This document shows, piece after piece, positions 6,807 through 9,785 of a stretch of 35,942 nucleotides of DNA. The notes under the pieces are model-generated. The model was given only the letters and a program-made list of their open reading frames with translations, was not told the origin of the DNA and ran no database searches. Source of the stretch: Candidatus Aminicenantota bacterium. GTDB taxonomy: Bacteria; Acidobacteriota; Aminicenantia; Aminicenantales; Aminicenantaceae. Numbering within the stretch: the first letter of the stretch is position 1; the number at the start of each line of letters is the position of its first letter. The position numbers were made by a program, and so were the translations under genes. The stretch is from positions 1 through 35,942 of the forward strand of contig QMPV01000010.1 in assembly GCA_003648765.1 (NCBI GenBank), read 5' to 3'.

Positions 6807-8153
6807 TCAAGTGTTAGGCAGAGCCAGGTGTTTCAACTCATTTAATTCTTCAGGAGAAATAGAGCTCCAGAGATAAGGAAAGAGAATTTTGTTATGTAAT
6901 AAAGGATCAGCCTCAGGCGAAAGATACCCTGCCTGCACTAGAACACTCCACTCTTGGGTTCCAGGAACAGGCGAAAAGAAGGCCAACCGTGGCCGAGCCC
7001 CCATTTTTTTCACTTCTTGAATACTTCTCCGGACACTAGCCGCTTCTTGCCCAGGCAAACCAACCAGAAGATAAACATTTATTTCATCCCGGGCATAACC
7101 AGCTGATTGCAAAGCAGCTAAAGCCCTGGCCAAAGCTTCTGGCGAAGATTTGCGGGAACAGCGCTGGAGAATCTTGGCGTCAAATGATTCCTGACTTAGG
7201 AACAAAGAGCGAAACCCGGCCCGAGAAAAAAGTGAAGCCAGTTCTGGATCAATCTCCCGGACGTGAAGTCCGTTAGGTGTATGGAAAGCCACCTTCAATT
7301 GCCGGCGAATGATTTCCCGTAGAATTGCTTTTAAATGAAGTTCTTTATTCACCAACAGCGCATCATCATAAAAGACAAAATGTCGATTCCCGAATTGTTG
7401 ATGACTAGTCTCCAGGAAATTCACCACCTCACTCACTTCTTTCTGATGAAACTCAGGATTTAGCTTTCGGCTGGCACAGAATGAGCAATGATAAGGGCAA
7501 CCACGGGACGTTTCTACAGGAAGAACATCCCTGTTTCTCAAGAGCGAATACCAAGGAAAACTAAAGTCTTTTCTTGTTGCTTTCTCAAGAAATTCATCGA
7601 TCTTCTCCCCCCACAATTGCTCCCAAAGAGACTCAAGTTTTAACTCAGCTGCTCCTTCTACCACTAAATCTGCACCTGAATAACGCCGGGCATGTTCGGG
7701 CAGAAGAGTAGCATAAATTCCCCCCAAGACAATGGGCACCGAGCCCAATTCTTGACGAATTAACTCCACTATAGTCTGGACACCTGGATACCAATAAGTC
7801 ATGACACAACTGATCATTACTGCATCAGGTAATGGAAGCCTTCTTAACTCCTGGCGGACAACCTCAGGTGGCAGACCATATCGAGAAAATTTTCGGGGAA
7901 TATCTCGGAGTACATCTGGTTTGGGGACTTCTTCTTTAGGGAAGGGACCCCGACCATCTTCTTTAACTCGCACTCGGGGACCAAGAGCCGGATGAAAACG
8001 GTCCAGACAATCTAAAAAAAAGAGCTCACAATGAGGAATTTTTTGTAAAAGAGAAGCCAGGCAGAGCAAGCCTAAGGGTCTTAACCAGAAATCATAAGCT
8101 GTAAAATCATATATCCAAGGATTAACTAGCAGAATTCTTTTCTTTTTAATCAT
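6807..8153 (-). CDS. B12-binding-type radical SAM protein
   Basis: This 448-residue protein has an N-terminal cobalamin-binding-like Rossmann region (KRILLVNPW, then VPIVLGGIYATLLPEHA at about residues 139-155). The radical SAM cluster motif CPYHCSFC follows, with Cys219, Cys223 and Cys226 (CxxxCxxC). The segment ETSRGCPYHCSFCAS and the later VYLLVGLPGQ are typical of the B12-binding radical SAM superfamily, which includes methyltransferases and ring-forming enzymes; the substrate cannot be told from sequence. The frame is open to 8198, but that would run into the tRNA-Leu gene. The ATG at 8153 (MIKKKRILLVNP) fits the family start, though its ribosome binding site is weak. It begins 20 nt after the tRNA and may be co-transcribed with it. 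Confidence 0.85.
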   Translation of the reverse strand: MIKKKRILLVNPWIYDFTAYDFWLRPLGLLCLASLLQKIPHCELFFLDCLDRFHPALGPRVRVKEDGRGPFPKEEVPKPDVLRDIPRKFSRYGLPPEVVRQELRRLPLPDAVMISCVMTYWYPGVQTIVELIRQELGSVPIVLGGIYATLLPEHARRYSGADLVVEGAAELKLESLWEQLWGEKIDEFLEKATRKDFSFPWYSLLRNRDVLPVETSRGCPYHCSFCASRKLNPEFHQKEVSEVVNFLETSHQQFGNRHFVFYDDALLVNKELHLKAILREIIRRQLKVAFHTPNGLHVREIDPELASLFSRAGFRSLFLSQESFDAKILQRCSRKSSPEALARALAALQSAGYARDEINVYLLVGLPGQEAASVRRSIQEVKKMGARPRLAFFSPVPGTQEWSVLVQAGYLSPEADPLLHNKILFPYLWSSISPEELNELKHLALPNT

Positions 8154-8173
8154 CAAAGAAGTTAAAAAAAATG

Positions 8174-8258
8174 TGCGGAAGGTGGGACTCGAACCCACAC
8201 GGTCATATTGACCATAAACTCCTGAGGCTTACGCGTCTACCAATTCCGCCACTTCCGC
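8174..8258 (-). tRNA. tRNA-Leu, anticodon CAG
   Basis: An 85-nt class II tRNA is encoded on the minus strand. The 7-bp acceptor stem pairs GCGGAAG (8252-8258) with CTTCCGC (8175-8181), followed by discriminator A at 8174. The D-arm contains GGCGGAATTGGTAGACGC. The anticodon stem TAAGC/GTTTA encloses loop CTCAGGA with anticodon CAG (reads CUG). A long variable arm and a GGTTCGAGTCC T-arm follow. The CCA end is not encoded. A good promoter lies just upstream at 8275-8303. Confidence 0.97.
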
Positions 8259-8274
8259 ACGCTTAAGCAGATTA

Positions 8275-8303
8275 ATTATAAATTCATCTCTTGCAGATGT
8301 AAA
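8275..8303 (-). promoter_or_regulatory. tRNA-Leu promoter
   Basis: On the minus strand TTTACA (8298-8303), a 17-nt spacer and a perfect TATAAT (8275-8280) lie 17 nt upstream of the tRNA 5' end. This is a near-consensus housekeeping promoter with a start expected near 8268. Confidence 0.8.
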
Positions 8304-8535
8304 GAGCGAATCCCCCCTTGGAGAGCTAACGATTCCCTGAGCCGGCCTCCTTAAAAGGGCCTTATCTCTCCCTAGTAATAAGCTCTTCCTCCACCTTAAT
8401 CTGCTCGGACTTAAGGAACTCAGTTTGACCTTCGCTTTTTTTACTTTCCCCCCAATAAGATTTCTTTTCATCAAGCCAGAGCCTCAATCTAAAAAGTAAA
8501 AGGAATATTTAAGGTCAAAATTTTTCTCCCTTTTC

Positions 8536-8564
8536 TTGACAAGCTTGGCTTGGGCAATTATTTT
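8536..8564 (+). promoter_or_regulatory. Promoter of the eRF1-like gene
   Basis: A perfect TTGACA (8536-8541), a 17-nt spacer and TATTTT (8559-8564) lie about 75 nt upstream of the ATG at 8640. The position also argues against the longer frame that would start at 8550, inside the promoter. Confidence 0.7.
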
Positions 8565-8639
8565 TTAAATACGTGGCTTCTCATCAATCAAATTTTTATT
8601 CCCTCAACTTTTCTCATAATACAAAACAAAGGAGGCTCA

Positions 8640-9785
8640 ATGAAACTACTTAATCAGGCTCAAATCAGTGAGTTAGCTCTCTTCAAAAGTCCCCGCTTTT
8701 TTATTACTTCGGCTTACTTCGATACAGACAAAAGCCATCAAACTTATAAAGAAATAAAACTCCGCTTGAAAAATTTAATCAGCCGGGCTGAAGAGCGGTT
8801 AAAACACCTCTCTTTGCATAAAGATAAAAAAGAAGCTCTTCGGGAAGATTTAAGAAAAATAGAAGAATATTTGTTCCAAAACCTTAGCTCATATAATCAT
8901 CCCGGTCTGGCTGTCTTTTCTTGCGCTCAGGAAGATTTTTGGCAGGAATTCATCTTGCCCGACCCTCCCCGCAATAGAATCGTCTTTGACCGGAATGCCT
9001 ATGTCCGCCCTCTCTCAGCAATCCTTGACGAGCACAAAAAGATCGGACTCCTAGTGCTCAACCGGAAAGAAGCCAAATTTTACGAAGTTTTTATGGATGA
9101 TATTAAGCTCATCGAAACTATTAAAGGAGAAGTTCCACCCCGAGTGCGAGAAGGAGGTTGGGAAGGATACGAGTCCAAACGAATCGAACGTCACATCGAA
9201 ACTCACCTCCACGAATATTTCAAAAATTGCAGCCAGATGACTTTCGACCTTTTTAAAAAGAATCAATTTGAATGGTTTTTCTTGGGCTGCAAAGAAGAAT
9301 ACCTGCCCTATTTTAAGGAACATCTTCATCCTTATCTCCAACAAAGATTAAAAGGACAGATCAAAGCTTCCCCCCTAGAAAGCCCTGATAAAATTCTCCA
9401 TAAAGTAGCCCATCTGGAAAAACTTCTCAAGGAAAAAGAAGAAGTCTCTTTGGTGGAAAGACTTATTTCTGAAATAAAGAAAGATGGCTTGGCTATTTCT
9501 GGGCTTGACTCAACTCTCGATTACCTTAATCGCTCAGCTGTCCAAACTCTTTTAGTGACTCGTTATTTTTCCCAACCAGGTTATATGTGCCCCAAATGCC
9601 ACTTCCTTTACGCTTCCTATGAGACGTGCCCCGGCTGTAAGATTAGCACTCAGCCTCTAGTGGATGTTATTGATGAAGCTATAGAAATGGCCATGAATAA
9701 AAACTGTGTAGTTAAGCATATTAACCCTCCCACACCCCTCCAGGAATATGGCAATATTGGTGCCTTTCTACGGTTTAAACCTTAA
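8640..9785 (+). CDS. Bacterial eRF1-like (baeRF/Vms1-like) release-factor homologue, GGW instead of GGQ
   Basis: This 381-residue protein resembles the central and C-terminal domains of archaeal/eukaryotic release factor 1. Residues about 130-240 look like the catalytic domain: LLVLNRKEAKFYEVFMDD, then RVREGGWEGYESKRIERHIE. There the GGQ loop of aRF1 is replaced by GGW (172-174), followed by the expected basic/acidic helix. Residues about 297-380 match the eRF1 C-terminal domain, with a zinc ribbon (Cys317, Cys320, Cys330, Cys333), LVDVIDEAIEMA and the closing GNIGAFLRF. Bacterial members are known as baeRF proteins and are proposed to work in ribosome rescue or quality control. The ATG at 8640 has AAAGGAGG just upstream. 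The missing glutamine makes peptidyl-tRNA hydrolysis by the usual mechanism doubtful. Confidence 0.78.
   Translation: MKLLNQAQISELALFKSPRFFITSAYFDTDKSHQTYKEIKLRLKNLISRAEERLKHLSLHKDKKEALREDLRKIEEYLFQNLSSYNHPGLAVFSCAQEDFWQEFILPDPPRNRIVFDRNAYVRPLSAILDEHKKIGLLVLNRKEAKFYEVFMDDIKLIETIKGEVPPRVREGGWEGYESKRIERHIETHLHEYFKNCSQMTFDLFKKNQFEWFFLGCKEEYLPYFKEHLHPYLQQRLKGQIKASPLESPDKILHKVAHLEKLLKEKEEVSLVERLISEIKKDGLAISGLDSTLDYLNRSAVQTLLVTRYFSQPGYMCPKCHFLYASYETCPGCKISTQPLVDVIDEAIEMAMNKNCVVKHINPPTPLQEYGNIGAFLRFKP

What the first reader, a model, noticed from the sequence alone, without database searches (positions are those of the whole stretch)
8640..9785. eRF1-like protein in a bacterium with GGW replacing the catalytic GGQ
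The C-terminal zinc ribbon and GNIGAFLRF ending match archaeal aRF1 well. The RxGGx-EGYESKRIER segment aligns with the aRF1 RKGGQ-RFERLRE loop, but residue 174 is Trp. Known: the GGQ Gln positions water for peptidyl-tRNA hydrolysis, and baeRF families vary in this loop. Inference: the protein may bind stalled ribosomes or tRNA without hydrolysis, or use a different residue. It has a strong promoter of its own.
Basis: partly seen in the sequence, partly recalled or inferred. Interest (0 to 1): 0.6.

Follow-up and report, generated by a model that had tools for sequence, protein, structure and literature searches.

The report
Balon-like ribosome factor with disabled release loop
The gene encodes a bacterial relative of the archaeal and eukaryotic protein that ends protein synthesis; it has lost the amino acid that cuts the finished chain free and looks most like known proteins that park idle ribosomes, so it is a clear new member of a recently described kind rather than something without precedent.

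Summary
The 381-aa protein at 8640-9785 (+) from a Candidatus Aminicenantes genome is a three-domain aeRF1-fold protein. GGW (172-174, nt 9153-9161) sits in the loop that carries GGQ in aRF1/eRF1. It scores above Pfam's cut-off for baeRF family 10. A 90-pLDDT AlphaFold2 model matches ribosome-bound Balon (Msmeg1130) over its full length (Z 29.9), ahead of aRF1 (Z 20.0).

Trp174 is not a private substitution: none of 88 distinct homologues has GGQ. Elsewhere in the family the motif is often GGWSQxRxQR, in which Trp occupies the Gln position gap-free. The Aminicenantales version has three extra residues and has lost that downstream Gln too. Trp174 is not fixed either (W27, F27, R5 of 63); the glycines, Glu183 and Arg184 nearly are.

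The genome also has two RF1/RF2-type factors and an HPF. The gene is near-universal in the order, under purifying selection, monocistronic, with a promoter conserved in 58 of 62 orthologues. Best reading: a non-hydrolytic, A-site-binding ribosome-silencing factor of the Balon/baeRF kind that keeps an aRF1-type zinc ribbon where Balon carries its EF-Tu hairpin. Biochemical function is inferred, not shown.

The parts
8640..9785 (+). Gene for the 381-aa aeRF1-superfamily (baeRF family 10 / Balon-like) protein
   Evidence: ORF with RBS; Pfam PF18854 59.8 bits vs cut-off 27.1; orthologue in 29 of 29 good-quality relatives drawn; dN about 0.06 with saturated dS against the nearest relative
8640..9029 (+). 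N-terminal domain, residues 1-130 (equivalent of the stop-codon-reading domain; no NIKS motif)
   Evidence: AF2 model; alignment to aRF1 4af1; sequence shows no NIKS
9036..9419 (+). Middle RNase-H-fold domain, residues about 133-260
   Evidence: PF18854 match 121-255 and eRF1_2; AF2 model
9126..9167 (+). Loop equivalent to the GGQ loop, residues 163-176, containing GGW (9153-9161; Trp174 at 9159-9161)
   Evidence: between strand 154-162 and helix 177-208, lowest pLDDT inside the model as expected for a mobile loop; loop alignments
9168..9194 (+). Start of the helix after the loop with conserved charged residues (YESKRIERH, residues 177-185); Glu183 in 63 of 63, Arg184 in 60 of 63
9429..9782 (+). 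C-terminal Pelota/eRF1_3 domain
   Evidence: PF03465 match residues 267-380
9588..9638 (+). Four-cysteine zinc ribbon, C317-C333
   Evidence: CCCC in 53 of 63 order members and 22 of 25 more distant homologues
8536..8564 (+). Sigma-70-type promoter TTGACA-17-TATTTT, ending about 75 nt before the start codon
   Evidence: CTTGACAA(A) conserved in 58 of 62 orthologues
8630..8635 (+). Ribosome binding site AGGAGG
   Evidence: conserved in the relatives aligned

Best explanation
The protein is a bacterial aeRF1-superfamily factor (baeRF family 10) that enters the ribosomal A site like a tRNA or release factor but cannot catalyse peptide release. It most likely works like Balon: the N-domain sits at the decoding centre without reading a stop codon, the middle domain reaches the peptidyl-transferase centre with a glycine-rich loop carrying an aromatic residue (GGW/GGF) instead of the catalytic Gln, and the C-domain contacts the GTPase-centre side, perhaps with EF-Tu. 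Occupying both active centres would keep the ribosome inactive and protected (hibernation or dormancy). Shown here: family, fold, loop position, absence of catalytic Gln across relatives, conservation, and presence of two ordinary RF1/RF2-type factors and HPF in the genome. Inferred: ribosome binding, A-site occupancy, lack of hydrolysis, and a role in hibernation.
For: Pfam baeRF_family10 above cut-off. The AF2 model (no templates) matches Msmeg1130 Balon as bound on the ribosome over 368 residues, Z 29.9, rmsd 4.5, and P. urativorans Balon Z 24.5, against aRF1 Z 20.0 with rmsd 11.7. A GGWSQ homologue gives the same order: Balon Z 32.4, eRF1/aRF1 Z 19 to 20. None of 88 distinct homologues carries GGQ. 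No NIKS motif. Two RF-1-domain proteins of 379 and 382 aa open frame cover normal termination. A 174-aa HPF is encoded in the genome. Balon and mycobacterial homologues bind the A site and lack NIKS and GGQ (PMC10901736). Burroughs and Aravind predict most baeRFs to be catalytically inactive and tied to hibernation factors (PMC6514570).
Against: NCBIfam Balon-family models score far below their cut-offs (best 70 bits vs 330), and the aRF1 model scores as well (74.5 bits). Balon's C-domain hairpin that touches EF-Tu is replaced by a four-Cys zinc ribbon. The gene is not linked to raiA/hpf or other evident stress genes and has a housekeeping-type promoter, whereas known Balon genes usually lie in stress operons. 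I know of no experiment on any member from this phylum.
Confidence: 0.68

Rival explanations
1. A Pelota-like rescue factor: it binds stalled ribosomes in the A site and promotes splitting or recycling without hydrolysis, rather than storing idle ribosomes.
For: Same superfamily; Pelota/Dom34 also lacks GGQ and keeps the three-domain plan. Burroughs and Aravind raise non-catalytic rescue for baeRFs. The strong housekeeping-type promoter and near-universality in the order suit a constitutive factor. The zinc ribbon and aRF1-like C-domain could contact a GTPase in the aRF1 way.
Against: Structure match to Pelota is weaker and partial (Z 13.7, 231 residues) than to Balon (Z 29.9, 368 residues); no ABCE1/Hbs1 partner was looked for, and none is known to me in bacteria.
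Confidence: 0.17
2. A still-active peptidyl-tRNA hydrolase that uses another residue or a shifted loop, as proposed for GGxSQ (VLRF1) and Gln-bearing baeRF family 10 proteins.
For: Burroughs and Aravind single out family 10 as keeping a conserved Gln and possibly active; GGWSQ relatives have a Gln two residues after Trp. GG and Gly176 are strongly conserved, so the loop is under constraint.
Against: The Aminicenantales version lacks Gln at both positions; the few Gln in the loop in some members (GGWQG) are not conserved. The GGWSQ Gln aligns gap-free with the Ala of GGQSA in Halobacterium-type aRF1, and Aeropyrum aRF1 has Gln there beside its intact GGQ, so that Gln need not be catalytic. Trp174 varies with Phe and Arg (8 changes on the tree).
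Confidence: 0.1
3. A function off the ribosome, for example tRNA or RNA binding, with the aeRF1 fold merely retained.
For: No direct evidence; the biochemical partner is untested.
Against: The characterised members of the superfamily that I know act on ribosomes; the GG motif and the conserved basic/charged helix after the loop are the parts that contact large-subunit rRNA in the family.
Confidence: 0.05

Closest known systems
Balon (P. urativorans AOC03_06830) and mycobacterial Msmeg1130 / Rv2629 ribosome hibernation factors
   Same: Three-domain aeRF1 fold with the same overall domain arrangement (Z 20 to 30, full length); no NIKS, no GGQ; bacterial; coexists with RF1/RF2-type factors and HPF
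   Different: 15 to 18% identity; far below NCBIfam equivalog cut-offs; keeps a four-Cys zinc ribbon where Msmeg1130 has none; GGW/GGF loop instead of the Balon lasso; no link to raiA or stress operon
baeRF family 10 (PF18854, Burroughs and Aravind 2019)
   Same: Scores above the Pfam gathering threshold; GGW at the loop is shared with many members
   Different: Lacks the conserved loop Gln noted for the family (seen here as GGWSQ); loop about three residues longer
Archaeal/eukaryotic aRF1/eRF1
   Same: Zinc ribbon, GxIGAxLRF C-terminus, loop position, di-glycine
   Different: Gln of GGQ absent; NIKS absent; NCBIfam aRF1 score 74.5 against cut-off 234.7
acVLRF1 / Vms1-like release factors
   Same: The GGWSQ relatives of the window protein match acVLRF1 profiles
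   Different: No GGxSQ Gln; has full N- and C-domains; the acVLRF1 profiles did not match the window protein at E up to 1

Membership tests
baeRF family 10 (PF18854) | Score above curated Pfam threshold | tested here: met
   59.8 bits vs 27.1
baeRF family 10 (PF18854) | Well-conserved loop glutamine reported for the family (seen here as GGWSQ) | tested here: not met
   GGWEGYESKR; no Gln in the loop. This is a reported trait, not the profile definition, so the family assignment is kept at profile level only
Balon hibernation factors | aeRF1-like three-domain fold arranged as in ribosome-bound Balon | tested here: met
   Z 29.9, rmsd 4.5, 368 residues
Balon hibernation factors | Absence of NIKS and GGQ | tested here: met
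   sequence; alignment to aRF1
Balon hibernation factors | NCBIfam equivalog score (NF052287, NF052288, NF052289) | tested here: not met
   70.2, 45.7 and 23.8 bits against 330, 480 and 320
Balon hibernation factors | Beta-hairpin insertion in the C-domain contacting EF-Tu(GDP) | tested here: not met
   four-Cys zinc ribbon at that place; Msmeg1130 aligns without cysteines. Whether a ribbon can play the same part is open
Balon hibernation factors | HP motif at the decoding centre and bL27 trap | not tested
   motif sequences are not printed in the text held; no ribosome complex modelled
Balon hibernation factors | mRNA-independent A-site binding, hibernation | not testable with these tools
   needs biochemistry or cryo-EM
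aRF1/eRF1 release factor | GGQ | tested here: not met
   GGW
aRF1/eRF1 release factor | NCBIfam aRF1 equivalog score | tested here: not met
   74.5 vs 234.7 bits
VLRF1 (GGxSQ) | GGxSQ motif | tested here: not met
   GGWEG

The most novel reading that the evidence does not exclude
A distinct order-wide class of A-site ribosome-silencing factor, intermediate between aRF1 and Balon: it keeps the aRF1 zinc ribbon and di-glycine, replaces the catalytic Gln by a bulky aromatic (Trp/Phe) on a longer loop that plugs the peptidyl-transferase centre, and is made constitutively from a housekeeping promoter rather than only under stress.
Probability: 0.3. Interest if true: 0.5.

Novelty: new member of a known kind. 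Interest (0 to 1): 0.33.

Why it matters
It places a Balon-like factor in nearly every Aminicenantales genome examined, uncultured bacteria for which the literature search here found no paper on ribosome hibernation. The loop comparison also bears on a published suggestion: family 10 was held to keep a catalytic Gln, but gap-free alignment shows Trp in the Gln position across GGWSQ members, with the remaining Gln at a position that a true aRF1 (Aeropyrum) also fills with Gln beside an intact GGQ. That makes the activity of the whole family directly testable.

Tried and rejected
A private or sequencing-error substitution: rejected, since GGW recurs at high divergence. Archaeal contamination: rejected, since neighbours (RND pump, radical-SAM gene) are syntenic in other Aminicenantes. 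Primary termination factor: rejected, two RF-1-domain proteins present. Link to hpf/raiA in an operon: not found; hpf lies on another contig after an rpoN-like gene and before a PTS-like gene (names by eye). Placement in a tree relative to Balon and aRF1: unresolved, long branches meet. Promoter as a sign of a special regulon: the same consensus precedes genes for products resembling DnaG, LexA, GroES and TonB-dependent proteins (names from sequence by eye), so it looks like the ordinary strong promoter. A first alignment script mis-oriented some loci and was redone. A Foldseek job on the second model was not collected, as the VIA-align result sufficed. No superposition of individual loop atoms was possible.

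Full report
Observation. The ORF 8640-9785 (+), 381 aa, starts at ATG 8640 behind AGGAGG and stops at 9783-9785. GGW is residues 172-174 and the protein ends GNIGAFLRFKP after a C317/C320/C330/C333 zinc ribbon. Pfam gives baeRF_family10 at 59.8 bits (cut-off 27.1), eRF1_3 at 28.7 (25.8) and eRF1_2 just under its cut-off. NCBIfam gives aRF1 at 74.5 bits and a Balon family at 70.2 bits, both far under their equivalog cut-offs. By sequence it is an aeRF1-superfamily protein about equally far from aRF1 and from Balon.

Origin and conservation. The nearest named genomes are Candidatus Aminicenantes; the 90% relative is JdFR-80. All 29 good-quality genomes among 60 relatives have an orthologue. Against the nearest relative dN is about 0.06 with saturated dS. 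The gene stands alone between a divergent tRNA-Leu (8173-8258) with a radical-SAM-type gene, and a convergent RND-type efflux operon, and this arrangement recurs in many relatives.

The loop. AlphaFold2 on a 30-sequence alignment gives pLDDT 90.2; GGW lies between strand 154-162 and helix 177-208, in the least certain internal stretch of the model. This is the place of the GGQ loop. Across 88 distinct homologues none has GGQ. In 63 Aminicenantales sequences the residue after GG is W 27, F 27, R 5, L 1 and gap 3, with 8 changes on the tree, while G172 is 94%, G173 92%, G176 95%, R184 95% and E183 100% conserved. More distant members read GGWSQxRxQR or longer variants. phmmer aligns GGWSQMRFQR gap-free with GGQSAQRFAR of aRF1, so Trp stands at the Gln position, and Aeropyrum aRF1 reads GGQSQRRYER with Gln at the +2 position as well. 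The Aminicenantales loop has three more residues; profile alignment then puts aRF1's Gln opposite Tyr177. In the model of a GGWSQ homologue the helix begins at the Trp itself. Either way the window protein has no Gln there.

Structure. Foldseek and VIA-align rank ribosome-bound Msmeg1130 Balon first (TM 0.77; Z 29.9, rmsd 4.5, 368 residues), then P. urativorans Balon (Z 24.5), Rv2629 (Z 20.1) and aRF1 (Z 20.0, rmsd 11.7). A GGWSQ homologue behaves alike (Z 32.4 against 19 to 20). A shared arrangement of domains with Balon is evidence for a similar binding pose, not proof of function; domain orientation in predicted models is less certain than the domains, and the higher rmsd to aRF1 is largely a matter of that orientation.

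Genome context. Two RF-1-domain proteins show that ordinary termination is provided for. An HPF of 174 aa is encoded elsewhere.

Promoter. TTGACA-17-TATTTT lies at 8536-8564. CTTGACAA(A) is found upstream of 58 of 62 orthologues; the C before and the A's after, which were not used for selection, are also near-invariant. TTGACA within 200 nt was seen in 57 of 62, against 5% of shuffles. Nine sites of this form occur in the genome against none for the reversed pattern, some ahead of housekeeping-type genes.

Mechanism and literature. Balon binds the A site in vacant and translating ribosomes, lacks NIKS and GGQ, loops around A2602 and traps bL27 (PMC10901736). Burroughs and Aravind (PMC6514570) described the baeRF clade, held most families to be inactive, proposed hibernation or non-catalytic rescue roles, and singled out family 10 as keeping a Gln. 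A 2026 paper separates archaeal Balon-like proteins from aeRF1 by the lack of NIKS and GGQ (PMC13324472). By these criteria the window protein most likely works like Balon. It is not filed as Balon, because the equivalog cut-offs and the C-domain hairpin were tested and not met.

Verdict. The finding is real and correctly located, the non-hydrolytic reading is likely, and the class of protein is already known. New here are its presence throughout Aminicenantales, the retained zinc ribbon in a Balon-shaped protein, and the evidence that an aromatic residue at the Gln site is a family trait rather than a private change.

Noticed in passing
8536-8564 and orthologue upstream regions: CTTGACAAA-N16-TATTTT promoter is unusually strongly conserved across the order, with a weaker GTG-like signal some 10 bases after the -10 box; leader of about 75 nt.
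   Followed up: partly
8173-8258 (-): tRNA-Leu (CAG) divergent from the gene, with an 11-of-12 promoter match at 8303-8275; ORF 8229-8474 (-) and the GTG start of 6807-8198 (-) as listed read into this tRNA and are mechanical artefacts.
   Followed up: partly
L026, L029 (loop KGR/TGR) and L045, L047, L096 (loop GGE): Some order members have lost one of the two glycines or the aromatic residue, so the loop drifts in sublineages.
   Followed up: partly
L098-L102: Family 10 members with long loops ending in SQ and no GGW (for example TGTDHSRSQMNIQRK), suggesting the SQ...QR part is more constant than GGW in that branch.
   Followed up: no
L041, L048 and relatives: Second cysteine of the zinc ribbon replaced by His, in some also the fourth by Asp, still compatible with metal binding.
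   Followed up: no
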